This document shows, piece after piece, positions 781 to 25,080 of a stretch of 64,000 nucleotides of DNA. Location of the stretch: assembly GCA_951812925.1 (NCBI GenBank), contig OX638368.1, positions 22,197,187-22,261,186 of the forward strand, read 5' to 3'. The notes under the pieces were generated by a model. The model worked only from the letters and a program-made list of their open reading frames with translations, did no database searches and had not been told where the DNA came from. Within the stretch, counting starts at the first letter, position 1. Every line of letters starts with the position of its first letter. The stretch is from Calliopum simillimum (lineage: Eukaryota > Arthropoda > Insecta > Diptera > Lauxaniidae). The translations under genes were made by a program, and so were the position numbers.

Positions 781-789
781 GAGTGAAGT

Positions 790-5060: not shown

Positions 5061-5069
5061 AGAGATGAA

Positions 5070-5600
5070 CTATTTATTAGTGGAAAATTCAATTTTAGGT
5101 GAAAATTTAAATTTTTTAGTGAAAAATTAAAATTTAAATTTGTAGTGAAAAATTAATATTAAAATTTTTAGTGAAAAATTAAAATTTTTTGTGAAAAATT
5201 AAAAATTTACATTAAAAATTAAATTTTCAGTTATAAATTCAGTTTTAAGTGATAAATTCAATTTAAAGTGTAAAATTCAATTTTAAGTGTAAAATTCAAT
5301 TTGCAGTGAAAAAATTCGATTTAAAGTGAAAAATTCAATTTTAAGTGAAAAATCAATATTCTAATAATAGTTAAATTTTAGAGAAAAATTAAATTTTTAG
5401 TGAAAAATTAAATTTTTAGTGAAAAATTCAATTTTGAATGAAAAATTTAATTTCTATGAAAAGTTAAATTTTTAGTGAAAAATTAAATTTTTTGTGAAAA
5501 ATTCAATTTTAAATGAAAAATTTAATTTCTATGAAAAGTTAAATTTTTAGTGAAAAATTAAATTTTTTGTGAAAACTTTTATTGAAAAAATTAATTTTTT
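5070..5600. repeat. Degenerate short-period array (GTGAAAAATTAAATTTTTA)
   Basis: About 530 bp of units of roughly 18-20 bp built on GTGAAAAATT(A/C)AATTTT, with a higher-order duplicate (the block at about 5430-5490 is repeated at about 5500-5560). Confidence 0.85.
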
Positions 5601-5639
5601 TTTCAAAAATAAAACTTAGTGAAAAAAAAATGAGGCTTA

Positions 5640-6180
5640 CGCTCAAAAATTATGGCATGGTCTTACAAAACTGCCATTGTGAAAATGATCACTTATGCTT
5701 CATAAGCTTGATGGCTAAAGGTAGACCAAGTAAAGGTGTGCCAGAGAATGTCTACGTAGGGGCACTTTCGGCACTGACATATGCATTTACTCGAAGTGTT
5801 TTGAACTTCTTCTCCCAGCCTTATCCAGGAATAATGATGTGACTTTAATGTGGATACCAGAAAAAGAGGGAGCAGACTCAATATTTTCATAGGCTCAGAA
5901 CAATTCTGCGGAGTGAACAAAAGCTTTAAAAAGAACTTAATTCCGGAATAGGAAGAAAATAGCCTTATCGTTTACTAGGGAGCCCAAGAAGGTATGCGGC
6001 AGGCGAAAAGACTAATCGATCCCAAACGTGTTAAGGTGGAAGCTATTTTAAATCTAAGCATAGAATATATAAAAACCTACACTGAAATAATGTCAGTTCG
6101 CTATAGACTTAATTACCACCCAAAGAAGATGGCTTTGGTGAACAAAGGCTCCGTCAAGAGAAGCAGAATTAAGTATCTTG
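5640..6180 (+). pseudogene. Decayed non-LTR retrotransposon, RNase H / C-terminal region
   Basis: Plus-strand frames, broken by stops and frameshifts, read like the RNase H end of jockey/R1-type LINE polyproteins: near 5845 LMWIP (usual form WVPGH...GNE), then FIGSEQFCG, then RQAKRLI, LNLS and, near 6090-6140, SVRYRLNYHPKKM, where intact elements have TGH..LN.HL.K.G. No long intact frame remains. Boundaries are approximate and the clade was not determined. Confidence 0.6.
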
Positions 6181-6384
6181 GTGCAAAAAATTTAGATCAC
6201 ATTAATTTCACGGCAGTGACATGATTTATAGATGGCCTAGAAGTGTTCTGAAAGGGAAAGAGGCGAGATTTGCATCTTCTAAAACGAAATCGGTTCAGAA
6301 CTTAATTTTAACCAATTTGGATGATTTATTTTATGTTGAAATGGCTGTAAAAAGAGGAAGCTGCATAGGATTATATTTTTTGTT

Positions 6385-6910
6385 TAAAAGTGGGCGGTGC
6401 CACGCCCCTTAATGGAAAAAACGCTTTCATTGCTAAACCACTGCATCGATTTTTATGAAATTCGGTGTGAAAATAGAGTTAGCACTAAGGAGCGATAGCA
6501 AAACCGTTATACTTTTCAGTAGGCGGTGCCACGCCCCTAAAAAAATCGCTCTCACGGCCAAACCACTACACCGATTTTTATGAAATTCGGTGTGAAAATA
6601 GAGTTAGCACTAAGGAGCGATAACATGACCGTTATACTTTTCAGTAGGCGGTGCCACGCCCCTAAAAAACAAAAATCGGCCAAACCACTACACCGATTTT
6701 TATGGAGTTCGGTATGGGGAGTTAGCACTAAGGAACGAAAACATGAATATTATGTTTTTCAGTGGGCAGTACCACGCCCCTACATGGATAAAAAGCCCTC
6801 ACGGCTAAACCATTGCATAGTTTTTGATGACATTTGGTATGAAGATAAAGTAAGCACTAAGAAACGATAACATGATCATAATGTTTTTCAGTGGGCGTTG
6901 CCACGCCCGA
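6385..6910 (+). repeat. Tandem repeat, unit about 126 bp, with GGCGGTGCCACGCCC
   Basis: Units begin near 6391, 6520, 6646, 6765 and 6889 with GGGCGGTGCCACGCCCC or a close variant, followed by CGATTTTTATGAAATTCGG, AGTTAGCACTAAGGA and GATAACATGA. Open frames across it are by-products of the periodicity. Confidence 0.85.
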
Positions 6911-8934
6911 AAACAGAAAATGTGCAGACATGGTTGCTGGTAAGAATTTGTTTATTTAAGTTAAGTGTTGGTTGGTCTTTTTAAAGTCAAATCGAAATGC
7001 TCGAATTTTGGTCACAAGGCAAATGTGTTGGATGGACGTATTCCTATTATGTCAATAGCAAGAAATAAAAATAACATAGTCCGACGTCAGATATAAGTAT
7101 CAACTGAATAAGAATATGGATATTCTGCTTCTTTTACCCAGCTTGCACACATTTTTTGTGCATTTCTTTCATTATTTTAATTAACCCTTGCAATGCGCAA
7201 TCTAATGCATTTTTATGCTTTCGTAAACCACAAGTTGCCTATGCACCATCCAACAAGGCGACACCAAAAAGTCACTGTTTTTGATTTTTCTCTTTTGTTG
7301 CATACTTTGCAGCGCGCATTTATCTGGACCCCTTCATATGCAAAAATCGAGGCAAAAAATCTTTTGTCTCTTGCCTTGCTTTTTTTGCAACGTTTAAAGA
7401 GTAAAACGTAAATGTGGTGGTGGCGGAGGCGCTTTTGTGTGTTTTCGCTTGGCTTATTGTATGCATATAGACTTAGTGCATTATTGGATGAAATTAATAT
7501 GACATTATTAATAATTTGCAGCAGAGGCAGCAGCAGCATACACTTAGGCGCAAAGACTTTGCTATCAAAGGAGCAAAGGAGCGCTGTACAAAAGCAAAAA
7601 TCTTTGTAAAGAATTTTTAATAAATCTCTGTAGTATAACCGCAACAATATCTTTAGGGAGAGAAGAAAAACCATAAAGTAGAAAAAGCTTGAAAAGGAGG
7701 ACGAAGGAGTAGAGAAAGAATTAAACAGCAGCAGCAGAAAGTCATAGAAATGCATTTTGTCAACGACGGCGACGACGGCGATGATGACTTGAGAGGAGTG
7801 CACAAAAGTATGCAGCAGCATTTTTTCGAAAGAAATGCTTATGCTTTTTGGTTTGAGGCGAGTTAATTACGTAGAGCTTTTGCCAAAGGGGTGTAGGTAG
7901 AGGTAGAGCGTGGGTGGCTATTAAATGCAAAAATGATAAAGAAATAAAAAAACAAAATGAAATTCTACAAAGGAGTGGTGGTTATACAAAGAAAATGAAA
8001 ATGTAAATATTTGAAAATTGCATTAAAGTGTAGAAAGGCGTATGATGGACAAGAAGTAAGAAAAAATATTGTTGCATACACTTGAGCGTTATGCGGTGGC
8101 GGAGTGGTGGCTAGAAACAACAATTTTTAACCTTTTTCTGCAAGTAATTAGCAAAAAATAATAAATGCACGTTAAGATAATTAATTGAATTGTTTAATTG
8201 GAATGTAGAAGTCATAAGAAAATAACAAAAAGGGTGCATTTAGTAGCTGCATGAATTTAAAATTGTTAATATATAAATAGAACCGTCCAATTAAAGACAA
8301 AATGTGTGTTCATATAATATACACAGAAGACTTACTAAAGCGAGAGATAAAGCATTTTTTGTGCAATCCCAGCTTTACTACATCTACCATGCATTAGCCG
8401 AAGATTTGATACTTCTTTAACTTCAACAAACAATATCCGGCTCTTGACTATGCAGTGGACATTTGTCTTCAAACCTCCAAACTTTCAGATATGCAAAATA
8501 AGCTACAAGATCTTGTCTTGAAAACGCTACTCGCCCCGAGTCTAAAAGTATGCTGCGCAACCCTTATAGACATGATACTACTTTTATGGCTGACAACGCT
8601 GCCAACGTTGACAACTTTTCACTTCTAGAGGAAAAAAAAAATTATCATGCCATAGGAACAATAATGAATATTGGAACTTTTCATGATTTTATCGAGAAAT
8701 TAAGGAAATATTGCTTCCAGAGGATGTATTTGCTATAAATAAATAAATAAACATTTCGAGAATGGAAACTCCACTTCCAGCAGGGATACTCTTTCTTTCA
8801 ATTTTCGCCAAAAAATTACTATGCTGTTCTGGTATTTTTAATTTAACTAGAATTTGCCTTGTGGCGAAAATTCGACCAAAAAAGACCAACCAACTATTAA
8901 CCTAAGCAAGCAAATTGTCATCAGTAACCATGTC
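6911..8934. other. Mostly non-repetitive stretch, no gene recognised
   Basis: Lies between two oppositely oriented arrays of the GGCGGTGCCACGCCC family. A 202-codon open frame on the minus strand (7213-7821) is the longest outside pros, but it is rich in Leu/Phe/Ser and Lys and resembles no family I know. I do not call it a gene. Confidence 0.4.
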
Positions 8935-9230
8935 TGTGCATTTTCTCTTTAGAGGCGTGCCACCGCCCACTTAAAATATAATGGTCATATTATCGTTCCT
9001 TAGCGTTAACCCTATCTCCATACCAAATTTCATAAAAATTGATACAACGGATTAGCCATTAAAGGGTTTTCTCCATTAAAGATCGTAGCACCGCCCACTT
9101 AAAAACATAAAGGTAATGTTATCGTTCTTTAGGGTTCCTTAGGAATTTCATAAAAATCGATGTAGTGGTTTATCCGAGAGAACATTTTTTCCATTTAGGG
9201 GCGTGACACAGCCCACTTTAAAAAAAAGAA
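8935..9230 (-). repeat. GGCGGTGCCACGCCC-family array in inverse orientation
   Basis: Read on the minus strand, units near 9210, 9090 and 8965 match the array at 6385-6910 (GTGGGC...ACGCC, CGATTTTTATGAAATT, GCACTAAGG-like words). About 2 kb separates the inverted arrays. Confidence 0.75.
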
Positions 9231-9289
9231 AATCCTATTCCATGTCAATTTGGCATCGCATTGATAGCTAGAATTTGAGCACAATACTA

Positions 9290-9450
9290 TTCTCATTTAT
9301 AAATTTGGGTTTAGTTTATCTAGTTTCGGGGATAAAGCCAACGAAAGATCAAGATATATGTTGCTTTTAAAAAAACCCTTGGATGAATTTTAAAAACTAT
9401 AGATATCATTTGAAAGGTATATAAAATTGTCCTACCAAAGCTTTGGAATT
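9290..9450 (+). repeat. Diverged copy of the foldback-arm family
   Basis: CTAGTTTCGGGGATAAAGCC, AAAGATCAAGATATAT, CCTTGGATGAATTT and ATTTGAAAGGTAT parallel the arms at 51.2, 52.5, 53.1 and 54.7 kb in the same word order. Confidence 0.6.
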
Positions 9451-9985
9451 CCAGTTTAAAAATTTGGGAATAAATTCTTACAACAAATGTTTAAGTATTC
9501 AATCCTCAAATTATTGCCAATAACTTTACTTCCATAAATTTTTTTTTTTGCGATTACATACCAAGGAATCCAAGAAAAAATTCTCGAGAAAGAAAGCGGA
9601 TTTTCTCAGCAACAGTTATACGGATGTTTCCGGTTATTTCTAGCATACGTATATATGATGGCCGTCTAGTTCATAAATGCATACTTCCCGGCAAACATTC
9701 AAGAAAGTTTGCTTTTATGCCCCGGAATGGAATCAACAAGACATTAACCCATATCGGCCCGGTACCCGATCCCGCTGAAATTTTTTTCTGAATTTTAAAA
9801 CTCATAATCAAGAAAAATCCGGTAGAATTTTTGGATATCTCAAACCGTTACGATTGGTATAGTTTTCTACCCCTTGCGCCAATACATATACTTTATTCGG
9901 AACAAAACTGGTTTTTGTAAAGTTTTTGCAAGTTAATCTGAAAAAATTGTAAAGTTTCATTGATATGTTATTCAAAATGTTGTTC
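9451..9985. other. AT-rich intronic stretch, no gene seen
   Basis: No convincing coding frame or repeat in this part; contains a few homopolymer T runs. Confidence 0.35.
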
Positions 9986-9989
9986 TATG

Positions 9990-10790
9990 AGCAATGGACC
10001 CCAATCACCTTATAACCACTCAGTTCACTTAGCGCATATTCATATTCCAGTGGCCAGTGACTACGTGACCACAAAAAGTCATAATTTTCAGGGATGAAAT
10101 TCTGGTTTTAGGAAGAAGAAACTACGCTCTAACGATATGTTGTTTCAAAAACTATTTTAATCTCTATAGATCTCATTTGGCTTCATTGGAATCCATTCAT
10201 GTTCCAGTGGTCATGGACCACATGACCAAGTGGCCATATTGGATTCTTAGTTTGAAAAGCCTTTATTTTCGAGGATAAAATTCTGGCTTCAGAAAAGAAA
10301 AACTAAATCAAACTGATATATTCTTTCAAACACTGATTTTCTATAGATTCCATTTGCTTTCATCGGGATCCATTCATGTTCCAGTGGTCCATGGCCGGGT
10401 GACTTAGTATGAAAAGTCCTTATTTTCAAGGATAAAATCTTGGCATTAGAAAAAAGAAACTGCACATAATTAATATATTTTGTTCCAAACACTGTTTTAT
10501 GTTCTATGAATCTCAATTGGTTTCATTGAAAACCATTTATCTTTTAGTGGTCCATGACCGCGTGACCAAGTGGCCAATTTTGGGTTCTTGGTATGAAAAG
10601 TTCTTATTTTCAGAGATAAGATTCTGGTTTTAGGAAGAAGGAACTATACTATACTAATGCATTGTTTCAATAACTGTATTCAGTTCTACGTATCTAATTT
10701 AGTTTCATCGAAATCAATGCATGTTCCTGTAATCCATGAACAGATGACTAAATGGCCATATTTGGCATTGTTCACTTTACAACTCGCAGA
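9990..10790 (+). repeat. Tandem repeat, unit about 180 bp, four to five copies
   Basis: The words TTCATTGGAA(T)CCATTCATG, GTTCCAGTGGTCCATG, CGTGACCAAGTGGCCATATT and GATAAAATTCTGG recur near 10050, 10200, 10375, 10545 and 10725. The last copy is the most diverged. Confidence 0.85.
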
Positions 10791-10799
10791 CTATTTCGA

Positions 10800-11814
10800 A
10801 GGAAATTTTTTATTTTTCTGATAAGTGCACCCTGTATATAATGGTTGTTCTTGTTTTGTAAAATACCACAAAATCTATTATAATTAAAATTAGCTACTGC
10901 CAAAGCTTTTACTCATAAGTTTATTGTAAAAGAAAACATTGCAGCAGCCAGCAGCAGCAGCAGCATATGCAGCACATACTGCTGTTGCTGTCAATTGCTC
11001 ACTTAAAGGAAGGAAGCAGCTTTTTTTTTGCTGTGTTCCCTAACTGCAATGCGCGACAAAGTGATATATGAGGTGCTTAAGTGTTGTCGCTTTATATTTA
11101 TATGTATATGTGTAGGTACATAATTAAACAGGGTGGTTAGGAGGTGTTTGAGAGAAACTGTTCAAATATAACAAAGCGTTAAGTGTTTGAATATAAAAAA
11201 AAAAAAAATAAATAGCAGTATTTCACACCTATCTTTTGTGCATTTTATAGCTTTTTTATTAAAAAAAAAATTGTATGCAAAAGGAACTAATTAGCTTTGG
11301 CATGACTTTTGCTATTCACGCCAAGGAAGTTAAATATTTCATTATATTTTTCTCATATTTGTTCAAATCTACATCTGCATAAAAGCTGCAATAATACATC
11401 ACACTCGAAATTTAAATTAAAAATATCTATTGAAATTCAAGCACCCTTTGCAATTTTATTAACAAAAGTCGTCTCTTCTACGTTGGCTGGCTATGCATGC
11501 AATGTTGTCAAATTTCTAAGAAATAACTGTCAAAATCTTTAATTTCACTTCTGTTTACAACTTAAAAGTAGAGGTATTGCACTGCAATCGGAAATATTGG
11601 CATATGACGTTTACCTTAAAACATGCAATACAAACGATTTCTACAAGTTACAAATTGTCTTGTCATATAAGTATCTTCACGAATTTTGGATATTTTTTAT
11701 TGGGGATGTCCTTGCAGGGAAAGAAAGCACCACTAATGATATAGATAACACACTTGTAACAGCAATTGTAAGTTTCAACCATATGATGACAATTTAAAGT
11801 TAGACCTAAGGTAT
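10800..11814. other. AT-rich stretch, no gene seen
   Basis: Includes a short CAG/GCA-rich patch at 10940-10990 and A/T runs. Short open frames at 11309-11797 resemble nothing known. Confidence 0.35.
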
Positions 11815-12200
11815 CTAAAATAATTGATTTTGAAAAGATCTAATTTGATTTAGAAAAAGTTTGATTTGATTTTGGAAAAGTAAAACAGCTAATTTGATTA
11901 GAAAAAGGATAATTATGAGTAAAAGTTGAATTTAATTTGAAAAAAATTTAATTTGATTTGGTTTGGAAAAAGTTTAACTGAAAAAGTTCAATTTGATTTG
12001 GGAAAAGTTTTATATGATGTGAAAAGGTTAACTTGATTGGAAAAATATTAATTTGATTTGTAAACTGTTTAATGTGATTTATTTTAATTTGGAAAAAGGT
12101 TAATTAGATTTTGAAAAAGGTTCATTGCTCGAAAAGGTTTAATCTGATTTGAAAAAAGTTTGATAAGTTGTATAAAAAGTGAAAAGTTAAATTTTTCTTA
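11815..12200 (+). repeat. Degenerate array (AATTTGATTTGGAAAAAGTTT), first block
   Basis: About 18 degenerate units of roughly 20-22 bp. The same motif in the same orientation forms a larger block at 15480-16350. Confidence 0.85.
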
Positions 12201-14190
12201 TTTGAAGATAAAAAAAACTTATACTTAAAAGTGATGGGTACTGAAATCGTTTGTATTTTTCAAAAAACTAAATATTTAACAATTTTCATAATAAAATTAC
12301 AAAACACACTCCATTTCCTACTTTTTTGACCATACAAAATATATTTTGTAAGTAAAAAGAAAAAAAGGATAAACTATCTTTCACATGACCCAAAAATTAA
12401 GATGGTATATACGTATTAAGGCTTCATCATTACTTCTGATTTTATGAACCTTTCAAAACATGAAATTGGCCGAAACTGCTTCACAAAATTCATAAAAATG
12501 GTCCATAACTCGGACATTTCTCAACCGGTCTATATTAAAAGTTGAGCTGTTTAAATTTTAAGATCATTTTTTTTCCGCATTAAGAACATTTTTCGGTTTT
12601 GAAAATGGGTTCGGGTCCATCAAATGATTTCTGAAATGAAAAAAATTTAAGATGGTGCTTATCCACATCAAAATTAAGTTTTTGATGCGCATGAAACGAA
12701 ATTCTGAACAAATTTAAACTTTTTCATACAAATCTGAACCAGTCTAATGGAGTTGTTTTAGTTTGGGCAAAATTTTCGATGTGTACAGGCAATTGGAGTA
12801 ACAAGAGAATTATTAGTATAAATTTTCTTTCATTAATGATATGAACATATCAAAAAACTTTTCCAAAAAAATATTTCCTCTTCCAACTGGGTAACCCATA
12901 TATGTATTGTGAGTGTACTACAAAGATTGTCGGATAATTTCCAAATGATGTCAATTGTCTAAAAATCGAAAGCAACAACAACAAATGGTGATAGTGCTAA
13001 TGCAAATACTCTTAAAACTGACAACACATTAAATTGATATATTGTTGTTTGTGTAGAAAACGAAACGTACATATAAGTAATGCAACAAATGAAAACTTAA
13101 CCTACGAAATAGCGAAACTTGTCTATTTTATGTTGGAAATTGAGACAAGAAAAAAAAGCAGCAAAATAACAATGAAAGGGTATTTAAAACAAAGTTTAGT
13201 AACGGCTCAAGTGCCCGCATGACATGCAATGGAAATGCCAACCAACTCGTACGAAACATTTCAAGAAATATTGAGCAATGAAAATAAAAATAATAATAAT
13301 AAAAATAAAAGATAAAGCAAAAGAGAAAATGCAAAAATTTAAGAAAAAAAAAAAACAACCAAGTCAAGAAATTCTTCCTGACTTACGCGCCAAAAAACCG
13401 AACAACATCTGTCAGAGTAACGTGCTATTGCTCGAGACAAACAAAAAACCCATAATGCACAACAATCACAACGCAAGAATGTTAACAAAACAACAACAGC
13501 AACAATAATAGTTCACCTGGTTTCTTGCTTTCTTTACGTGTGCAAGGACATAAGGACAACCCTAAGAAATTGCTGATATACCTCGTAACTACCCGTAAAA
13601 TCTTAAGACAGCTGATTTTGTCTAAGACGCCGAAACGTCTTAAGAAACAACGTAAGGACTAAAAAGGGAGAAAAACAAAAAATGCAGGTAATAAAAATTT
13701 AAAAATAAATACGTTGGCACGTTCTCTGGTTTTTCCAAATATTCATTGTGAGAATTTTGTTTTTTTTTTTCTTCTGCGTTTGCACCCTTTTTGTCCCTAT
13801 GCTACATTAACTAAGGGTTGCTGTTATGCTCACAGCAGAAAAGGTATAAGTAAAATGTCTTAAAACTGCGACAACTCCTTACAAGGATATATAGTGTGAA
13901 TAGAAATCTTAAATAAATCTTACTAAGGGTTGTTCATAAAGTTTTCTTGTCTTGATGTATGGGAATTTTTCGAGAAATATTGTTTGCTTCTCTCGCGCGT
14001 TTAGTTGACTTGTAGGTTAAAATGGGTGGGAATTTTTATTTCAAAGATTCAGTAAGTTAAAAACATAATTATATAGGGAGAATATGGAAAAAAAGTAACG
14101 GTCGCGCAGTATTTGAACTTTGCAGTCAGCTGGCGGTGGTGGCTGTATTTTGTTGTCATTTTTTTGTAAGAAAATGCTGATGCACTTTTT
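12201..14190. other. AT-rich stretch, no gene seen
   Basis: Holds an A-rich patch with AATAAT and AAC repeats at about 13275-13510. No gene or RNA recognised. Confidence 0.35.
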
Positions 14191-15290
14191 TATACCCTAC
14201 ACCCAGGGTATATTCACTTTGTCCTTCCGTTTGTAACGCAATGAAAAGTACATATATTCTTGATGAGCGTCACCTCCTGAGTTGATATAGCCATGTCCGT
14301 CTGTCTGGCTGCTTGGCTGTCCGCCTGTGAAAATATTTTTTACGGGAAAACTACGCAAGATAATTCGATGTAATTTGGTACAGTGGATTTGCCGTAAAAG
14401 TTAGCTCGCTGGATTGAAAATGAGTGAAATCGGTCAACGGATACGCCTGCCACTCATACAAAAAATATATTCTTAATGCAATTTTAGGAGTGTTTTTCAC
14501 GACAATTCAATCAAAATACAATAAATACTACAAATTCTAGGCGCAAACTCTGAGCAAACTGGTTGAAACCGGACAAGAGGGCGTGGCACCTTCCATAGAT
14601 TAGATTAGAGTGGTGGCTTAGTAAAACGATGCTAAGTCCAAGTAGCACTGTTAGTGCCGTTTTAATACCACATAAATGATCGGTCTGGCTGGCAGTAGGT
14701 ATGTCAGGGTCTGAATTAGATATCCTTTAAAGGAAACTGTACATGATATTTATATCCATTTTATTGATGTAGTTGAGCAGGGGACCGATTTCAATATCGG
14801 CGAGTTAACTCAAATCGTTGAAAAAGGGTTTTCTAGAGATTTGAACCTGGCTCTAGCTAGAGCAGGGCAGTTGCAGAGAAAGTGTTCGAGAGATTCCTTC
14901 TCGTTGCCATCCATGCAACTCCGACAGAAAGAATTAAAGGGGATATCCAGCCTTTCGAAATGCTTTCCGATGGCCCAGTGCCCAGTGCAGACTGCAGCGA
15001 TTCTTGCAATATCAGCGAGATTTCTGGATAGCAGGTCTGATGTTTTTCTGTTTTGATGTCCCATATAAGGAAAAGTTTCACAATGCCATACTGAAAGAGT
15101 TTTTTGAGATTATCCAACTAAATTTCACTCAGACACTAAGAACTATAAACGCAAGGTCTGATCAAAAACTGTGTGAACTTAGACAAGAGGGCGCGGCACC
15201 TTCCTTATAAGCAAAATTTTCAAAATACTGCAGTATAGGGTATTTAATGTTTGACCAGGCCAAAGGTAACACACCTAGGTACTAGTTTCT
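14191..15290 (+). mobile_element. Helitron/DINE-like element, copy 1 (carries a nested LINE fragment)
   Basis: The left end is TATACCCTACACCCAGGGTA, containing a short inverted repeat as in INE-1/DINE elements. The right end has a stem-loop (TTGACCAGGCCAA) followed shortly by ACTAG|T, the layout of a Helitron 3' end (hairpin, then CTRR before T). The interior has the GGGCG(T/C)GGCACCTTCC...ATAAGCAAAA unit. A LINE fragment splits the copy at 14598-15060. No transposase is encoded, so it is non-autonomous. Confidence 0.75.
14598..15060 (-). mobile_element. 5'-truncated LINE fragment inserted in the Helitron-like copy
   Basis: On the minus strand the frame reads SRNLADIARIAAVCTGHWAI, then FCRSCMDGNEKESLEHFLCN and CPALARAR, the RNase H / zinc-knuckle end of jockey/R1-type LINE ORF2. 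The 3' end at 14598 is a short CTAATCTAATC tail. The host repeat is interrupted exactly here: TTCCATA lies on the left and TCCCATATAAG on the right, consistent with a short imperfect target duplication (CCATA or slightly longer). Only the last part of the element is present. Confidence 0.85.
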
Positions 15291-15479
15291 TTTTTGATAT
15301 TTTTTTTAAATTTTTCTTGAGCTAAGTGGAATGTAGTTAACTTAGGTAAAACAAAATTAGTGCTAAATTTGTAGATAATACAAATCATCTGTACTTTATT
15401 TGATGCAGGTTTTTTACTCCAAGATAAACCTTTTCCACATTATATTGATCATTGTGAAACTATTTCCAAATCAAAATAA

Positions 15480-16350
15480 ACCTTTTCTAATCAAAAAAAT
15501 CGATTTCCAAAGTTGAATTCGACTTGAAAGAAGTTTAATTTGATTTGGAAAAGGTTTATTTTGATTTGGAAAAGGTTAATTGGATTTTGAAAAGGGTTAT
15601 ATTTGGAAACAATTCAATTTGATTTACAATAGAATAAGTTTAATTTGATTTGGGGAAAGTTTTATATGATCTAAAAATCAAATTATGATTAGAAAAAGGT
15701 TTAATAGTTGGAAAAAGTTTAATTTGATTTGGAAAAGATTTAATTTGATTTGGAAAAGATTTAATTTGATTTGGGAAAAGTTTGATATGATGTGTAAAAA
15801 GGTTAATTTGATTGGAAAAAGGTTAATTGTTGGAAAACGTTTAACTTGATTAGATATATGTACGTATAGTTCAATTTGGTTTGGAAAAAGTTTATTTTGA
15901 TTTGGAAAAAGATTAATTTGTTTTCGGAAAAGTTTAATTGTTCGAAAAAGTTTCACTTGATTTAAAAAATTTTTAATTTGATTGGAAAAAGTTTAATTGT
16001 TGGAAAAAGTTGAATTTGATTTGGAAAAACGTAAATTTGTTTTGGAAAATGTTTGACTGAAAAAGTTGAATTTGATTTGGAAAGGGTTTATTTTGATTTA
16101 GATAAAAGTTTATTTTGATGTGTAAAGGATTAATTTGGAAAAGTTCAACTGTCGGCAAAACTTTAATTTGATATGGGAAAGGTTTATTTTGATTTGGAAA
16201 AAGTTTAGTTGTTTGAAAAAAATTTGATTTAGAAAAAGTTTAATTAGATTTGGGAAAAGTTTAATCTGATGTGTAAAAAAATTAATTTGATATGGAAAAT
16301 TGTGGAAAACATTGAATTTAATTTCGATAAATATAATTTGATTTGGAAAA
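15480..16350 (+). repeat. Degenerate array (AATTTGATTTGGAAAAAGTTT), second block
   Basis: About 870 bp of units of roughly 20-22 bp. On the minus strand it yields repetitive open frames of the type NLFPNQIKLF, which are array artefacts, not genes. Confidence 0.9.
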
Positions 16351-17122
16351 GCCTCGGTTTCGTTCGGTAAAAGCTTAAAACTATTCACCAAGAAATATGC
16401 GATTTTTTGTTGAAAATAAACTACAAGGCTTTAATTTTTTGATCGCAGTTATCCCTACGGACCTTTTCGGTCTATGTGTGGCTAATTTGCCGCCACTTAA
16501 ACCTAACCTATGTTTTAGTTATTTAGCAATTTAAGTACCTCAATAGTTAACCAGTTAATTAACCAGTTAATTAACCAGTTAATCAACGAGTTAAATAGAT
16601 AGTAAAATAATTAGTTAGTTAAGCAGTTGATTTAATAAATAGTTAAGATGTTAGAGTTTTGATTCATTAACCAATTAAATTTAACTTAACCAATTTGCTG
16701 ACTGCATATCTATAATTTCTGACATTAATGAGTTCTGGATAAACACAACTCAATCATTTTTAAAGTTCAGCTCTGGTTTTCGTGATAAGCGTGTATGAAA
16801 ATTTTACATAAAAAGCCCTAAAAAAGCGTTAGATCACAGACAGTGCAAAAAGTGCTTTAATAACTTTTTTCCATGTTAATTAAATGTTACTCATACGACG
16901 TGTTGTACGTGATTAAATAGGTTATAAATAATTACAAAAAGTATATAATTTTCGCAAATTTTGCAATAACCTGTCAATTTTTTTATATAATATGATAACA
17001 AGTAAGCAAATTATTTTTATCAGTTATTTAATCAATAAGTTAACTAGTTAGTTAGTTAGCTAACTAACCGCTTAAACCGCCTATGAATATATTGAATAAG
17101 TCACAAATTTGTTTCTACTCAC
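16351..17122. other. Intronic stretch next to the pros donor; AGTTAATTAACC mini-array
   Basis: A small degenerate array of AGTTAATTAACC occurs at about 16540-16690, with related TTAACTAGTTAGTTAG words near 17040. The pros donor GTGAGTAG ends the stretch at 17122. No gene is seen. Confidence 0.5.
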
Positions 17123-17305
17123 CGGAAATTCGAGAACCATTTCACCAATTGTGCTGTATTATTCTTGTTGAATTTGATATCGGGGAAATACATCTTCAAC
17201 ACCGCTGAACTGGGATAACGCACCCAGAAGAACATTAGTTTCGCCTTGCGCAGATGCATCGGTGTCAATGTCGATGAGTGCAATGGAGTTAAGGAATCGG
17301 ATTTG
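17123..17305 (-). CDS. pros: prospero, exon encoding the start of the homeo-Prospero domain
   Basis: This exon is too short for a simple ORF search and was found by reading the minus strand after the large exon. It encodes [20 protein letters not shown] followed by [20 protein letters not shown], then [20 protein letters not shown], the near-invariant first part of the Pros/Prox1 homeodomain. The frame joins the large exon exactly (CT + C = Leu) when the U2-type sites are used. It ends in phase 2 at CG, followed by a strong donor GTGAGTAG (first base 17122), so an Arg codon is completed in the next exon. The donor cuts the protein inside homeodomain helix 3, as judged from the known Pros structure. 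The remaining homeodomain and the Prospero domain must come from an exon outside this window. Confidence 0.96.
17288..17296 (-). promoter_or_regulatory. U12 branch-point sequence TTCCTTAAC within coding sequence
   Basis: The nonamer matches the U12 snRNA-pairing consensus without mismatch. In the long isoform the same bases are exonic and encode part of Asp-Ser-Leu-Thr, so they carry both splicing and protein information. Confidence 0.92.
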
Positions 17306-18343
17306 CTATAATTTTTTATGAGTATTTTATGTTGATTTTTGTATTTTAATCATATAAATTGAATTAAAATGCAAAATGCACCAAAAAATCCAAATACGAA
17401 GACAAAAAATGAAACAAAGAAATAAGAAAAGTTGGAAGAAAAAAAGTAGAAAAAATGGAAAGAAAACAAGAAAAGAAAAAAAGATAAAGTTTTAAAATTC
17501 TCTAGTCATTTCATAGTTTATGTGCGCAATGAAGTACCAAATGGTGGATTGATTGTATTTGATGACAATTCAAATTAAAATTTTTTTGCATATAAACTTT
17601 GATTGAATGTTGATGGAAAGAAATACAAAAAACTTATTTAATTTACTAAGTAGGGTAGCACTGTTAAGCTCTGCTACACCACGAAAGAAGGGCGCATTGA
17701 AAGACTTAAGAATGAGGGTTCTGATTACAACGCACGAAAACACAAGAAAAACACTTGATTGGATTCCTGTTTTGTATTGTATGTATTGTCATGCAGCGTC
17801 TCATTCTATTGAATTAAAACAAAAAACTACATTTAAATCGGTTAAGTCAGACTTAAGGCTTAAGACTGAGATTCAAATTCCCTCAATGTTGTGTTTTTCT
17901 TGTAGTAAGATTTTAAACGTTAGGAATAATGAATTGTAAGAAGTTTTGCTTTTAACTTTGTGAGGCTTCTGAATCTTCTGATAATACTACGATTATATGC
18001 TAGAATTATTTAACTTTGAAATGAATATTAATAGTTCGATTAAGAGAGCCTTCCTTGAATCGTCTTAAGTAGTTCCTCTAGAAATTCGTTTTAGTTGGCC
18101 TAAGGTCATACTATTCTCTTACTCGTATAACTATCTTACTATAGTCTTAATTCACCCTTTCAATTGAAATCCTCTCTTAGAGAAACTTTTTAAGATCACA
18201 TCTGACAATTCAAGTACTAAGTTCTAGACTTTCAAACTATTATTTATCTCCTCAACCTCTCCAACATTCAGTAAAAGTTGCAATCAATCCCTATTGGCAC
18301 TTACATACATATTTTCAATTCTAAAATCGGAACTCAAACTCAC
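17306..18343 (-). other. pros: U2-type GT-AG inner intron of the pros twintron
   Basis: The donor is CATATGCT|GTGAGTTT (intron base 1 at 18343), 26 nt inside the U12 donor. The acceptor is AATTATAG|CAAATCC, with AG at 17307-17306, 28 nt upstream of the U12 acceptor. The acceptor has almost no pyrimidine tract (A-rich upstream), so it looks weak; no other AG occurs in the roughly 50 nt upstream, which makes the choice clear. Use of this intron (1,038 bp) keeps the reading frame and gives the longer isoform. The interior is AT-rich with no recognised gene; a 110-codon open frame on the plus strand at 17607-17939 resembles nothing I know and is treated as chance. Confidence 0.92.
18246..18262 (-). 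promoter_or_regulatory. Candidate purine-rich splicing element in the twintron
   Basis: On the pros strand this reads GGAGAGGTTGAGGAGAT, a purine-rich block about 80 nt downstream of the U2 donor. Drosophila pros carries a purine-rich enhancer downstream of its U2 donor that controls the U2/U12 choice. The distance differs and the match is by composition only, so the function is inferred. Confidence 0.35.
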
Positions 18344-19258
18344 AGCATATGTTGTTTCAAAAAGGATATAGTAGGTTGCATGCCCTCGAATTGCATATCC
18401 GCCGAATTACAATCCGAACTCCGATCCTGTGCATCCATAGCGGCACGCAAATGTGCGCTATAATCGGGTGAACCACCATGATGTGCTGCTGCAAGCAATG
18501 CCGGATGTAGCATCGTTGGTGGATGCGGTAGAGGCGGTGAGTCGCGAGAGTCCATTAGACCGCCTAGACCCGGTGGGCTTGATGACATTTTCATATGATG
18601 CATTTGCGCGGCTGTTGGTGGCGCATGTGAACCGCCATGTGGCCCGTGTGGTGGCGGCGGTGGCGCATGCGGCGGATGAGGATTAAAGAATGGACTGTAC
18701 GGTGAGAAGACTTGCGACTCATGCAGCGATGGATTTGGTATAGCCACTGTGGTGGGCAATGACACCATTGGTGGTGGTGGTGGTGGAGGCGGATGATATG
18801 TTGGCGGGATCACTTGTGAACGAGGCGAAGGACTTTGCGTTGGCGTTGTATTGTTATTGTTGTTGTTGTTCGCATTATTGTTCAAATTCATATTGTTCAA
18901 ATTCATATTGTTGTTCATGTTGTTGCTGTTGTTCATTTGGGCGGGTATTGAGCTCAACGAATTGTTGTTGTTGTTGTTTAGATTGCAATTGTTATTTTGA
19001 TTTTGTTGCTGTTGCGTTAGATTACTACCACCTGGTAGCCCAAATTTACCATTCATATTGGTCGCATCTAACATGGGATTAGTTGACACTGCACCGTTGC
19101 CAGGAGCGCCCGTTGTAGGTGGAACAATACCGTCCTGTGCGAGTATACGGCTGACAGTACGCGGCGTTATACGTGTATCTGTGACCTTATGGCGTTTCTT
19201 CTTTGGTGTAACAACCAGACTGAGCGCTTCATTTTGCTCCAACTGTTGCTGTTGTTGT

Positions 19259-19316
<58 letters not shown>

Positions 19317-20644
19317 CACGCGTCTCCGGCAAGCAAAAAGGATTCATTTGACTTGGTCCTCCTCCACCGGCTGCCATTGAGTTGTAGAGCGCTGCTGCTG
19401 CAACTGGATTCATACCTTGTGGTGCTTTTGGTGCCTGAAACATTGCTGCCGCTGTGGGCGAAGGACGTATATGAGGAGGCGGTATATTAATGGAACTTAA
19501 GCTATTGTTAGTATTTATTGGGTTATTGGGATTATTAATGCTGCCATCAGGCTGCTGTGGGTGATTGTGGTTATGCTGGCCCGCTGCCATTGCAGCCGCA
19601 GCCGCATGTTGCATTTGCAGGCCCATTGCTGCAGCTGCTGCGGCTGCTGGCGAGGGAAATGCTAGCTGACTGCCGTTAAGGCGTGGACCACCCATCAGAT
19701 TTTGACAATTCTGTGCATTGAGTGCAGAGATTTGCTGATTCAATTGCGAGTGTTGCATTTGATTGACTTGACTTGCATTGGCCTGATTGTTGCCATTGCC
19801 GAGCGGGTTGCCGAGTTGACCCACCACCTGAGCTTGAGCTAAAAGTTGTGGGCCATTGCTAACAGCATTTTGCTGCATGTGCCCCATATTGTTATTAAGG
19901 TTATTGTTGTTATTGATGGAATGGTTAGTTGAGGAGTTACTATTGACTAGAAGTAGAGAACCGTTATTACCTGATTGATTACCACCAGCGTTGGAAGCTC
20001 CTGTTGAGCTTTGCCCCGAATTGGACTGATGGTTGGCTGCACCCGAAGCATTATTGCTGGTTGTAGACTGCGTACGATCAGCCACCTTGGTGCGTGGAGA
20101 TTTCCGATCCAGAATTTGTGAGGCCAACATAAGATCTTTATTGAGCTGCTCAGCAGCGGCTGCGACCGAATCCGATTGTTTGCTAAAAAGTCGACGTTGA
20201 TGCACAAAGCGTGTAACTATGGTATCGACGAGCGCTGAGAGTGAGGTGGTGATCTCTGATTTTAGTACATCAGCGAGGCCTTCAAGATCGGAACCTGACA
20301 TGCGCATAACTGAACTTGAGCTGGAGCGCAGCATATTGAACTTCTCAGAGATTTCAGACTTGATCGATGAATGGTTTGAGCGATTCAAACGATTGTGATG
20401 CATTTGTGGGCGGGTTGGTGTATTAAGAGGTGTGGCAGAAGCGGCAGCAGCTGCAGCGGCGGCGGCTTCAAGCTGTTGTTGCTGCTGCTGTAGCTGTTGC
20501 TGCAATTGTTGCTGTTGCCGCTGCAATTGCTGCTGTGCCTGTTGTTGTGCCTGCTGATGTTGCTGCTGTTGGTGCTCCTCTTTTCGTCGCTGTTGTTGTT
20601 CCTGTTCAAAGCGTCGCTGTTGCTCCTGCTGCTCTTGTTGCTGC

Positions 20645-20685
<41 letters not shown>

Positions 20686-23511
20686 TTGTAACTGCTGCGC
20701 CTGCTGCTGTTGTTGCTGCTGTTGACGTTCCTGCTGCTCTGCAGCTTCTTTAGCCATGCGTGCTTCTTGTTCGAAAAAGAATTGCTGTCCCAAGTACATG
20801 GCAGCAGCATTGCTTATTGCAGCATGTGGCAAATGCGGATTGTTTGTGTGATCACTTTGTAATTGTGGCATGTGTTGCAGCAATGGCAGTGGCCCATTGA
20901 ATGGCTGCTGCATGTGCGGATGTGCCATAAGCGGATTTTGCAATTTTGATGACATCATTTTCGACATCATTTGCGAAAGCATGTTTGGCGTATTGTCGAC
21001 AACCAATGATGCATTTTGGTCAATTGTTGCATTCAAATGTTTTGAATTTTTGAGGGCTTCCAGCGCGGAAGGTGATGTGGATGAAGCACGTTGTGGCTCA
21101 TCCTGATGTGTTTTATCACCACCAACAGAATCAGCTGTTAAAGAAGGAGATGGCGAGAGATCACCGGGGTTATCATCCTGCTCCATGCTATCGCTGGCAG
21201 TATCGTCCAACTCTTGACATTCCGACTCCTGCTCCATGCGCGAGCATAATTGCACATATTTCTGTTGCATTTCAGCCAATTGTTCCTGCATGGAACGCAG
21301 TTGTGATTTAAGTGCATTCTTTTCCACACGCTTTTGCTGTATCTGTGGTGATTCGATTTCATCATGTGACTCATCCGCATCATCCAGCATCATGCTCTGT
21401 AAATTAAGGCCAAAATTAAGACCTGCAGCAGCGGCCACATACCGTTCCATTGCATGTTGTTGTGGCTGATAGAGCTTGCGTTTCTTGCAGCCATTGACCT
21501 GCAAATGAGGTTGATGTGAAGTCGATGATGGACTGGAACGCATCGATGAAACGATATTTTCAACACGTGCACGCTTGAGATCTAAGCCACCAGACTTTTT
21601 GGACATAGTCGCGGCAACATCTTTCTCCAGCTCTTCCTCGAGCTCGTCCTTGCTGTTGTCTAGCAACATCATATCCGAGTGGCTGGGAGAAGCTAGTGAT
21701 TCTAAGTCGGAGCGCGAATTTAGACCCATAAGTTCGACATCTTCTAAAATATCGTCAGCTTCCTTCTTTGTCACACCAACTGGTAAATCTGTGGACGTTA
21801 ATTGTTGATCATCAGCCAATGGCTCGGCATCAGCAAGCTGTTCCATATTATCAGCCTCCGAATGTTGTTCGTCACCATGCTGAGAACCAACCGCATCAGA
21901 ATCTGATGATTTACGTCGTTCAGAGCCGGTGCCGCCAAGACCGATGCCGTTTTGGGTGATATTGGGTTCACTTTTGATTTTGATCGTTGGCAGATCATCA
22001 AGCAAATTTATCACATCATCACATGTTGATTTATCACCACCGGTCACTGTATTATTATTGGTGGCTGATGTGTTGTTATTGTTATGCTTTAGCGTATCCT
22101 GCACATCTTTCTGCTGCTGTTGCTGGTTCATAACCGAACGCAGCTCCTGATCAAGTTGCATTAGCTCCTTCTTGCCCTGCAGTATATTACGCAGCATATG
22201 ATGTGCCAAATCCTGCTGTTGTTGCTGTGTGGGCGATGTGCATGCTGAATTGCTAGCCTTTGAAGCGCCGCCTGTCGTTGATGGAGCGCGTGGTGGTGAA
22301 CCAGCATCTACAGCCACGGCTACAACACCCTCTAAGGAACGTTCACTACAGCTACTCGAACGACGATTTTTTGACGTTGGAGAAGATTGCGCGGTTGCAT
22401 TATCAAAAGCACCAGAATTGTTGTTTGTGGTTGATACACCACCATTTGGGGTAGTTGAGTTCGTATTGTTATTGTTGTTGTTGTTGCTTAAACTATTTAT
22501 TGTATTATTATTGAGCAATTTGCTAGTTGCATTTAAATTCAAACTATTCACTAAACCGGCTGCACTTAACAATTCGGCACTTGTTGCCGATTCCATGGCA
22601 GCCGCCAGCATGGCATTGTCCAGCGTACTGGGCAGACCGCTGGTAGCATCTTGGGCCTGTTTCATTTGACGTCCAAATAATTCATTTAACATTTTAGCTG
22701 AACCGAAACCGTTAGCACCGAATAGATTACCGAGCGCAGTCGTGAAGTTACCCGTTACCGTAGCCGCTGATGCGCCAAGCAGCGATGGGGACGAAGAAGC
22801 GGACGATGTTGTCGAGGATGAGGATGTGGGCGAATGGTTATTATTGGTTGAATTTGTGTTGTTGTTGTTTGTATTATTGTTCGCGGCGGAAGCGGCGGAC
22901 GTATTGGACGCGGACGTATTCGTTTGGTTTAGCAAAGCTCCATATAGAGCTCCTCCAGCGGCACCCGCGGCAGCCGCAGCAGCACTACTCATGAATGCAG
23001 CGGCTGTGGATGACGAGGACGCGTTGGATTTCGATTGTGATTTTGTTGTGAGAGTCGACGACGGTGATTTAACAGCAGCAAATCCCGATAATTGTGAACT
23101 CAAAGAGTTTTTGGTTTTTACTACTTTTGAACACGTGTCACTAGCACTATTTTTTTGGGGGGCTTCTACTGTCAACAACGACGACGACGTGGAATTTAAG
23201 GACGAAGACGACGCGTTTAACACTGAATTATTATTACTGACGTTGGTGGTGGGGCACGATGTTGTTGTCTTGTTGACGGCACCACACTGACTACTTGTAA
23301 GTTTCTGTATGGCTTGCGAGCTCGGGCTCGACGTTATTAGCACTTCGTTATTATCTACTTCGTGTTTAATTTCGTACGACGACGATAACGACAACGGAGT
23401 AAACGAAGCAGCAGCAGACGACGACGACGATAACGTTGTTGTCTTTAGTAGTAACTTTTCATCACTGTACAAACCAAAACAGTCTGTGTTGTCCTCCTCT
23501 GATGACATCAT
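18344..23511 (-). CDS. pros: prospero, large coding exon (N-terminal about 1,722 codons)
   Basis: Prospero is a nuclear homeodomain factor that switches insect neural precursors from self-renewal to differentiation and is partitioned asymmetrically at division. The frame opens with MMSSEED and runs on as [15 protein letters not shown] with one extra Asn, as I recall Drosophila Pros. I start at the ATG at 23511; an in-frame TGA lies just upstream, near 23541, and the only longer start would be a TTG at 23538. The second ATG (23508) has A at -3, so initiation could use either. Visible parts: Ser/Asn/Ala-rich N-terminus; KRARVENI motif near residue 646 and a coiled coil at about 728-761, both resembling Prox1; a Gln-rich stretch at about 924-1017; a conserved block ([20 protein letters not shown]) near 1081; a pure Gln tract at about 1399-1424; a basic KKKRHK, possibly an NLS, near 1437; a His/Pro-rich end. 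The U2 donor ends the exon in codon phase 2. The longer open frame to 18340 just reads a few bases into the intron. Confidence 0.97.
19240..19316 (-). repeat. Pure polyglutamine tract in pros
   Basis: About 25 consecutive Gln codons, mixed CAG and CAA on the coding strand. Mixed codons suggest a tract of some age rather than a very recent expansion. Confidence 0.95.
20462..20740 (-). repeat. Gln-rich region of pros, with adjacent Ala tract
   Basis: About 90 residues, mostly Gln with scattered Glu, Arg, Ala and Leu, ending in a run of about ten Ala (downstream side, 20440-20465). It lies between the coiled-coil part and the conserved LKSEITTSL block and is likely disordered or helical linker. 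Confidence 0.9.
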
Positions 23512-25080
23512 AAGATGCCAACAGTTACGGCGAAGCAATCACTCACTCGTACGGTTGGGCGCACACACATAAACAAGAGCACGCACAATACGTTGATAAC
23601 GGCAAAGGCAACGACGACGACAATTGCAACGTTAAGTTGGAGAGAGCGACGGGAATGCGCGAGATTTATACTTCGATAGTATGAATGTGTGTTTTGTTGC
23701 GGTACTCACGGGAATTCTCGTTTCTCCACTTTGTCGTGTCGTTTACTTTTGTGTGTCTTTTTTGTTGCAGAAAGTGTGTGCGTTTGATGATTCGGTGGTT
23801 GTATTGGTGTCGTATGGTTGAGGAACGTGCCGTCGTCTATTGGCTCGTCAAGTATTTGTTGGTTTATTTGTATTTTCTCTAATTCGTCGCGTTCTTTGAA
23901 ATTAAATATAAAGCAAGGAGTCGAGCAGGCAGGCAGGCAAGCAGTCAGGCAAACCACTACACTCAAAACCCGCGACAGTTGGTTTCTCTTCTCCGAGGTT
24001 TCTCCTTTAAAAGTGTGAAGGTAGTTGGGGTGTTGCTAATTTTTACTGTTGTTGTTCTAAATTCGCCGTATTTTTTCCGCTGTTGTTGTTGTCTCTGTGG
24101 AATCTTTATTACCTTCTTTCTCTGAGTTTTTCTAACTATTTTTATCTCGCTTGCGCTTGTGTTCAATATCTTTCTTTCTTTCTTTTTTGTAAGTTTTTTC
24201 TTAATGTTGGTATTTTGATATCTAATTCGTGTATTGTCAGTTCTATCTGTGTGCCTCTCTCTTTTTAATAATTTTCTTTTGGTATTGGTAAATTTCAACT
24301 GTGTTTTCCTTTTCTTTTGAAAATTTTATTTCTTCTTCTTTTTATTTTTTTACTTCGTTCCGTGCATGTGTGCCGTAGTTGGTTTGTTTTCTTTTTGAAG
24401 TTTTTCAAAATTTCTTGCGTATTTTTTTCGGCGATTTTAATAACTCCTTGCTGACGTTTACTCTCCTTTTTGGACGTCCTTGTAGTTGTTGTTGTTGTCG
24501 TTTTTGGTTGTGCTCAGTGAAGACAATTCGCCGTGTTATTGTTGTTATAATTTTTGCTTCGGTTCGCAATTTTTTTAAATTTTCAAAATCTTCGTTTTCG
24601 TTTTTTGCGTTTTCTAATAGTAAATTTTGTTTTATGTTTTCTTTCCACCACCACACACATGCGAATGTCCTTTGCATTTAAATTTTGTTATTTTATTTTT
24701 TGTTGTTTTTCCCTTTTAGGTATTTTTTTTATTTTTATTTTGTCTTGTCGTTTGAATTTGGTTTTTTTTCTTATTTTTGGTTTTTGGATTTCTCTTCTGT
24801 TTTGCTCTCAAAAGTCTCTCTGGAAATAGAAAAGAAAATATTGGAGAGAAAATCATATGTGAGAAAAGTTGGAAAAAGTTTTGTTTAAAAGTTGGGCTTA
24901 ACATAAAGCTTTTGCTGAGAATGTCCTATGCGAAAGCACAGCTTTGTCGTGAGGATGTCGAAAGTTTCTTTATGGCATGTCCTTTAAGCTTGAAAATCAG
25001 TTCGAGAAAATTGGAGTTCAAAACAAGAGATTTCAATAAAGATCGTATTTTGCTTTTGGACTAGAGTTGCCCAAGAAAAT
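23512..25080 (-). other. Upstream leader / candidate promoter region of pros
   Basis: This stretch directly upstream of the pros start lacks the tandem arrays seen elsewhere. It is strongly T-rich on the plus strand (A/GA-rich on the pros strand) between about 23990 and 24830. The part next to the start contains ACGACGACG-type runs and GAGAG motifs. Drosophila pros has a long non-coding leader, so part of this is probably 5' UTR. I could not fix a transcription start, TATA box or leader splice site, and the open frames here (up to 111 codons) are low-complexity. Confidence 0.45.

What the first reader, a model, noticed from the sequence alone, without database searches (positions are those of the whole stretch)
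17278..18369. Nested U2-in-U12 twintron in pros, with perfect minor-spliceosome signals
Both donors and both acceptors are visible and in frame. The AT-AC U12 intron (ATATCCTTT donor, TTCCTTAAC branch site, AC acceptor 11 nt later) encloses a GT-AG intron. Twintrons that act as an isoform switch are very rare. Drosophila pros is the classic case, and here all four sites persist although the inner intron is about 1 kb and the flanking sequence has diverged.
Basis: partly seen in the sequence, partly recalled or inferred. Interest (0 to 1): 0.9.

Follow-up and report, generated by a model that had tools for sequence, protein, structure and literature searches.

The report
Fly prospero nested major-minor intron
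This looks like a fly's copy of the known prospero "intron within an intron", where two different splicing machines compete to make a shorter or longer version of a nerve-cell master regulator; the signals are intact, and the major machine's 3' end looks unusually stretched out.

Summary
Confirmed at the exact coordinates. On the minus strand of a fly prospero gene, an AT-AC U12 intron (18369-17278, 1092 nt) encloses a GT-AG U2 intron (18343-17306, 1038 nt). Both splices join the long pros exon in frame to the Homeo-prospero exon and differ by 54 nt (18 aa; published D. melanogaster: 29 aa). Swapped pairings shift the frame; retention meets a stop at once. Rhagoletis and Eupeodes gene models carry nearly the same insert. 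This is the known prospero twintron, so its persistence is expected. Additions: (1) no AG for 194 nt before the U2 acceptor, with the pyrimidine tract about 100-170 nt upstream (0 of 2000 shuffles; 2 of 5650 gaps outside tandem arrays), suggesting a distant branch point; (2) in relatives the insert's ends are conserved and its middle is not, and the ends spell U12 signals (ISF = ATA TCC TTT, SLT = TCC TTA ACT); (3) ISF-initial inserts in six of seven malacostracan models and an ISF segment in three spider models hint at an origin before insects. No transcript of this species and no DNA of other arthropods could be examined.

The parts
18370..23511 (-). long prospero coding exon up to the U12 junction (ATG of MMSSEED at 23511; 5' UTR not mapped)
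   Evidence: open frame 18340-23538; tblastn of Rhagoletis P0001, Drosophila pseudoobscura P0009, Eupeodes P0005
17278..18369 (-). outer AT-AC U12-type intron, 1092 nt
18361..18369 (-). U12 5' splice site ATATCCTTT; read as ISF in the long isoform
   Evidence: ISF conservation in relatives
18344..18369 (-). long-isoform-only coding segment, 26 nt (ISFLKQHM + 2 nt)
   Evidence: similar insert in P0001, P0005
17306..18343 (-). inner GT-AG U2-type intron, 1038 nt, phase 2
18338..18343 (-). U2 5' splice site GTGAGT with poor exonic context (GCT|GTGAGT); TGA stop 18342-18340 if not spliced
18299..18304 (-). decoy consensus donor GTAAGT 39 nt downstream; its use would keep the TGA stop
   Evidence: score 6.42 versus 6.97 for 18343, recalled weights
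18288..18293 (-). TAGGGA at +51 of the U2 intron, candidate hnRNP A1-type (Hrp36/Hrp38) site
   Evidence: motif preference recalled; not rare in the window (15 found, 13.8 expected)
18232..18272 (-). most purine-rich stretch of the inner intron (+72 to +112), candidate purine-rich enhancer
   Evidence: function inferred
17402..17490 (-). distant pyrimidine-rich tract of the U2 intron (extent read by eye)
   Evidence: best 40-mer 92.5% pyrimidine, starting 168-170 nt before the intron end
17307..17501 (-). AG exclusion zone, 194 nt from the previous AG to the acceptor AG
17306..17307 (-). U2 acceptor AG, the first AG after the distant tract
17278..17305 (-). long-isoform-only coding segment, 28 nt (rest of L, then KSDSLTPLH)
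17288..17296 (-). U12 branch site TTCCTTAAC, read as (D)SLT in the long isoform
   Evidence: SLT conservation
17278..17279 (-). U12 acceptor AC
17123..17277 (-). exon encoding the first third of the Homeo-prospero domain, followed by donor CCG|GTGAGT at 17122
   Evidence: Pfam PF05044 1.8e-27, profile 1-50 of 154; 52 of 52 residues match Drosophila Prospero 1xpx_A

Best explanation
It is the prospero twintron of this fly, orthologous to the Drosophila one. Shown from sequence: two nested splice-site pairs, both in frame, that exclude each other. Inferred: U11/U12 recognises ATATCCTTT and TTCCTTAAC and removes 1092 nt to give Pros-S; U1/U2 recognises GTGAGT and the TATAG acceptor and removes 1038 nt to give Pros-L, whose 18 extra residues sit immediately before the homeodomain. 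Each choice destroys the other: U12 splicing removes the U2 intron, and U2 splicing turns the U12 donor and branch site into codons. The U2 donor is weak and has near-equal decoys, so U2 choice probably needs the purine-rich stretch just downstream, as with Hrp36/Hrp38 in Drosophila. Speculative: the 194-nt AG-free zone suggests a U2 branch about 100-180 nt upstream, which would move U2AF65 and U2 snRNP away from the U12 branch site lying 10 nt past the U2 acceptor, so that the contest is settled at AG recognition rather than at branch-site loading. The confidence given is for the twintron itself, not for this last step.
For: Exact splice sites, frames and frameshift of swapped pairs. HPD domain, 52 of 52 residues identical to Drosophila Prospero. 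Gene models of Rhagoletis ([19 protein letters not shown]) and Eupeodes ([18 protein letters not shown]) with the same ends; a Glossina model ends ISFLKQQMM, as an unspliced donor at this place predicts; the Rhagoletis protein aligns in blocks ending at 18343 and starting at 17322. Anchor-based sorting of 175 relatives placed 151: 66 models with insert, 47 without, 38 open run-through ends. Insert ends conserved, middle not. AG exclusion zone: 0 of 2000 dinucleotide shuffles, 2 of 5650 AG gaps outside tandem arrays. Most purine-rich 30-mer of the inner intron at +75. Drosophila precedent: passages of PMC2831892, PMC3564746, PMC8329584, PMC6865273.
Against: No RNA of this species seen. U11, U12, U4atac and U6atac genes could not be checked: the genome search did not complete in 12 tries. 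The U2 donor scores 6.97 against 12.24 for the next pros donor, with 18155 at 6.68 and 18304 at 6.42 (recalled weights). TAGGGA and purine stretches are not rare (15 versus 13.8 expected; 23 comparable 30-mers in 128 kb). The AG-free zone folds no better than shuffles (z -0.08). A yUnAy match lies 13 nt before the intron end, so a distant branch is not forced. Counting tandem arrays, 9 of 6128 AG gaps reach 194 nt. In PMC1431707 only an estimated one-fifth to one-half of zones of 100 nt or more mark distant branch points, and alternative-acceptor events were not raised among them.
Confidence: 0.9

Rival explanations
1. Relic: the sites persist by recent ancestry or as protein sequence, and in this species one spliceosome now does nearly all the work, so there is no switch.
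For: No transcript data here. Some relatives may have lost the canonical U12 donor: 8 sequences read MSF (Diamesa and 7 unnamed ones) and 4 read LSF.
Against: In this window the U12 donor and branch site are full consensus matches. If protein function drove conservation the middle of the insert should be conserved too, but entropy is 0.3-0.6 bits at residues 1-3 and 2.2-3.8 bits at residues 4-9. Chironomus, Clunio and Polypedilum models still read ISF.
Confidence: 0.06
2. The real U2 donor is a downstream GT (18304 GTAAGT or 18155 GTGAAT), so U2 splicing yields a truncated, decayed product and the twintron is an off-switch.
For: These sites score close to the proposed donor (6.42 and 6.68 versus 6.97).
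Against: Both leave the TGA at 18342-18340 in the message. Rhagoletis, Eupeodes and Megaselia models have inserts of 19, 18 and 18 residues against 18 predicted here, which implies, without showing DNA, the same donor place.
Confidence: 0.03
3. Chance or mis-assembly: splice-like motifs without function.
For: Each motif alone is at chance frequency in the window.
Against: Joint placement at the conserved boundary, correct frames and matching inserts in relatives.
Confidence: 0.01

Closest known systems
Drosophila melanogaster prospero twintron (Otake 2002, Scamborova 2004, Borah 2009: originals not held; seen through passages of PMC2831892, PMC3564746, PMC8329584, PMC6865273)
   Same: Same gene, intron just before the homeodomain, AT-AC U12 outside and GT-AG U2 inside, in-frame longer U2 product.
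   Different: Insert 18 aa here against 29 aa. A 194-nt AG exclusion zone with distant pyrimidine tract here; whether Drosophila has one was not checked.
PROX1 (vertebrate prospero) AT-AC U12 intron
   Same: Orthologous U12 intron (PMC2831892 Table 2 in the passage: fruit fly twintron, human U12).
   Different: Listed there as U12, not twintron; the table of 18 human twintrons in PMC3564746 was not read.
SRSF10 nested U2-in-U12 (AT-AC) module (PMC8329584 passage)
   Same: Same nested logic and AT-AC outer intron.
   Different: Decides an exon with a poly(A) site and truncation, not an in-frame insert; unrelated gene.
dUrp/ZRSR2 twintron of Diptera (PMC2831892, PMC3564746 passages)
   Same: Insect U2/U12 twintron.
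   Different: Sites shifted rather than nested, GT-AG U12, and the ancestral intron was U2.
Human exons with distant branch points and large AG exclusion zones (PMC1431707 passages)
   Same: AG exclusion zone of at least 150 nt with pyrimidine tract far upstream; cassette splicing is more frequent among exons with zones of 100 nt or more.
   Different: Described for U2 exons of human genes; here the zone sits just upstream of a competing U12 branch site, and the branch itself is unmapped.

Membership tests
prospero/PROX1 gene | Homeo-prospero domain | tested here: met
   PF05044 1.8e-27 for the exon product, profile 1-50 of 154; 52 of 52 residues in 1xpx_A. No convincing match to the rest of the domain in the window (best E 0.89).
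U12-type AT-AC intron | ATATCCTTT donor, TTCCTTAAC branch site, AC acceptor close downstream | tested here: met
   (consensus recalled)
U12-type AT-AC intron | excision by U11/U12/U4atac/U6atac | not testable with these tools
   no RNA; the genome search unanswered
prospero twintron | U2 pair nested inside the U12 pair, both in frame, mutually exclusive | tested here: met
prospero twintron | long isoform with extra residues just before the homeodomain | tested here: met
   predicted 18 aa; inserts in gene models of relatives
prospero twintron | purine-rich intronic enhancer shortly downstream of the U2 donor | tested here: inconclusive
   best purine stretch at +72 to +112 and TAGGGA at +51, neither rare; Drosophila element not available for alignment
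prospero twintron | developmental change of U2/U12 ratio | not testable with these tools
   no expression data
distant-branch-point U2 acceptor | AG exclusion zone of at least 150 nt with distal pyrimidine tract | tested here: met
   194 nt
distant-branch-point U2 acceptor | branch formed far upstream | not testable with these tools
   needs lariat data; a near candidate (13 nt before the intron end) exists

The most novel reading that the evidence does not exclude
The prospero twintron is an arthropod device older than insects, in which the minor-spliceosome donor and branch site are kept as the fixed ends of an otherwise free peptide; in this fly the U2 side uses a branch point 100-180 nt from its acceptor, so that U2 and U12 snRNPs can sit on the same pre-mRNA at once and the decision is made at acceptor choice, not by exclusion at the branch site. 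In some midges (Diamesa and unnamed kin) the U12 donor has changed, which would be the completed U12-to-U2 type switch that was proposed for twintrons but not observed in the two insect cases.
Probability: 0.2. Interest if true: 0.65.

Novelty: new member of a known kind. Interest (0 to 1): 0.4.

Why it matters
Twintrons are a natural test of competition between the two spliceosomes. A version with an 18-aa insert and a stretched U2 acceptor gives a way to ask at which step the competition is settled. The insert comparison separates RNA constraint from protein constraint: the residues that are fixed are those that spell U12 signals. [quoted passage not shown]

Tried and rejected
Secondary structure: neither the acceptor region (17278-17505, z -0.08) nor the donor region (18150-18400, z +0.75) folds better than shuffles, so I claim no structural control. 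Rfam on the window: 0 matches at gathering score. Relatives' DNA: phages (no match), viral contigs (10 pattern hits, none a relative), genome contigs (75 pattern hits, none a relative). TAGGGA kept only as a candidate, since its window count equals chance. Literature searches: prospero with twintron 15 papers; minor introns with Chironomus and U12 0; twintron with crustacean 2, one of them PMC2831892; twintron with polypyrimidine tract and branch point 4, not opened for that question; prospero, twintron and arthropod 0. All cover open-licence PMC text only, so absence from print is not claimed. Of the eight papers opened (PMC2831892, PMC3564746, PMC8329584, PMC3584512, PMC1431707, PMC8199999, PMC9352204, PMC6865273) I saw passages only; PMC9352204 had nothing on the twintron.

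Counts and their biases. A first version of that anchor slipped by two residues in many rows and was discarded; one search is the one used. It left 24 of 175 unplaced (11 with the homeodomain motif matched, 13 without), among them the three spiders, Artemia, Strigamia, both Cloeon, Oratosquilla and Bemisia; and two of its rows (P0027, P0151) are off by one residue. Against the reading: two leafhopper inserts start DSPRN, and a Menopon and a Nicrophorus insert do not start ISF. The searches listed 120 of 244, 255 and 316 hits, 175 different proteins in all; many are gene models, which do not prove transcripts, and clusters may hide other isoforms.

Full report
Observation. The gene is on the minus strand. 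The open frame 18340-23538 is the long prospero coding exon; Rhagoletis, D. pseudoobscura and Eupeodes Prospero proteins align along it. At its end the sequence reads CAA CCT ACT | ATATCCTTT TTGAAACAACATATGCT | GTGAGT, and 1 kb later TATAG | CAAATCCGATTCCTTAACTCCATTGCAC | TCA TCG ACA TTG ACA CCG ATG. U12 splicing gives ...[15 protein letters not shown]...; U2 splicing gives ...[33 protein letters not shown].... U12 donor with U2 acceptor, and U2 donor with U12 acceptor, both shift the frame, and intron retention meets TGA at 18342-18340.

Is it more than chance? Single motifs are not (2 found versus 1.19 expected; 1 versus 0.76). Their joint place at the conserved exon boundary is, and so are the frames and the match to relatives. 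The downstream exon starts the Homeo-prospero domain (1.8e-27, profile 1-50 of 154), with 52 of 52 residues shared with the solved Drosophila protein 1xpx_A; the matches to 1xpx_A and 1mij_A begin at SSTLTP, the junction, so they say nothing about the insert. The rest of the domain was not found in the window.

Relatives. Three protein searches brought 175 different proteins. Gene models of Rhagoletis pomonella and Eupeodes corollae carry [19 protein letters not shown] and [18 protein letters not shown]; a Glossina model ends ISFLKQQMM, which is what a donor at the same place, read through, predicts. With an anchor in the upstream exon that asks nothing of the insert, 151 of 175 could be placed: 66 models with an insert, 47 without, 38 open ends that run into the intron; 24 were not placed. 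The insert starts ISF in 59 of the 66 and in 29 of the 38 (30 of 38 if one row that is off by one residue is counted); the others are MSF 8, LSF, DSPRN (two leafhoppers), VHF and a few misread or different starts. Over 53 distinct inserts of at least 11 residues, entropy is 0.63, 0.27 and 0.37 bits at residues 1-3, then 2.2 to 3.8 bits at residues 4-9; near the end it is 1.5, 1.2 and 1.4 bits for the S, L and T columns, 1.0 for the final H, and 3.4 just before the S. ISF is ATA TCC TTT, the U12 donor, and SLT is TCC TTA ACT, within the branch site. The simplest reading is that RNA signals, not protein function, fix the ends. This is inferred from proteins; the codons were seen only in the window.

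Reach of the arrangement. Six of seven malacostracan models (Portunus, Panulirus, Macrobrachium, Homarus, Penaeus, Oratosquilla) have an ISF-initial insert before SSTLTP, and the krill model has LSF. Three spider models (Caerostris, Stegodyphus, Nephila) read ISFLP...SMHTSTLTP at this place. The Artemia model and the centipede Strigamia do not show ISF. PMC3564746 states that the U2 sites appeared early in insect evolution (passage). If these models reflect transcripts, the origin is older. In the seven malacostracan models the end of the insert lacks SLT, so there the U2 acceptor probably lies after the branch site.

The U2 side is odd. The last 40 nt before the acceptor are 35% pyrimidine. 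The best pyrimidine 40-mer (92.5%) begins 168-170 nt before the intron end, and no AG occurs for 194 nt before the acceptor. None of 2000 dinucleotide shuffles of the intron has a last gap, or any gap, that long. In the window, 9 of 6128 AG gaps reach 194 nt (6 of 3051 on plus, 3 of 3077 on minus); outside the tandem arrays it is 2 of 5650. In a human set, 165 of 67,334 introns have a zone of at least 150 nt; cassette splicing is more frequent for zones of 100 nt or more, alternative-acceptor events are not, and only about one-fifth to one-half of such zones are taken to mark distant branch points (PMC1431707, passages). Against a firm conclusion: T-rich stretches lower AG frequency by themselves, and a yUnAy match lies 13 nt before the intron end. 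The mechanistic point is that the U12 branch site starts 10 nt past the U2 acceptor; a distant U2 branch would separate the two branch-recognition complexes.

The U2 donor is weak (6.97 versus 12.24 for the next pros donor, recalled weights) with near-equal decoys at 18155 and 18304. The most purine-rich 30-mer of the inner intron begins at +75 and TAGGGA is at +51. In Drosophila a purine-rich element binding Hrp36/Hrp38 controls the balance (PMC8329584, passage), at a place that I recall as about 46 nt downstream of the U2 donor. Position and composition fit, but neither motif is rare, so this is a candidate only.

Mechanism, with status. Shown: sites, frames, stop on retention, AG-free zone. 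Supported by gene models of relatives: both products. Taken over from Drosophila: developmental switching (nested major intron preferred early, minor intron later; PMC6865273, passage) and enhancer control. Speculative: distant U2 branch and simultaneous occupancy.

Verdict. It is a new member of a well-known system, so the overall interest is moderate; the AG exclusion zone, the insert ends that are RNA signals and the hint of a pre-insect origin are the parts worth following.

Noticed in passing
P0019, P0022, P0025, P0034, P0035, P0043, P0045, P0046 (P0019 is Diamesa hyperborea; the rest unnamed): The insert begins MSF instead of ISF, implying a changed U12 donor (ATG in place of ATA) if the place is the same. 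Chironomus, Clunio and Polypedilum models still read ISF. Possible U12-to-U2 type switch in some midges.
   Followed up: partly
P0137, P0138 (mayfly Cloeon), P0151 (krill), P0054 (unnamed): The insert begins LSF, so the U12 donor would start TT or CT instead of AT if the position is the same.
   Followed up: no
P0161, P0168, P0169 (spiders): ISFLP...SMHT directly before STLTP: an ISF segment at the twintron position outside Pancrustacea.
   Followed up: partly
P0060, P0107 (leafhoppers): A 51-52 aa insert starting DSPRN instead of ISF; may be a separate cassette exon spliced at this junction.
   Followed up: no
window 1-17121: The rest of the Homeo-prospero domain (after NFR, donor at 17122) was not found in the 17 kb downstream: a long intron or an assembly gap. 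The Rhagoletis model also ends at NFR, where reading through the donor gives a stop here.
   Followed up: partly
window 56593-57712: Dense nested tandem arrays (periods 19, 38, 77, 155-160) of a TTTTCGAAATT-like unit, also containing the longest AG-free run of the plus strand.
   Followed up: no
window 59275-59908: Tandem array with a 142/284-nt unit, 92% matches at period 284.
   Followed up: no
window 34298-34543, minus strand: The only other AG-free run of at least 194 nt outside the tandem arrays.
   Followed up: no
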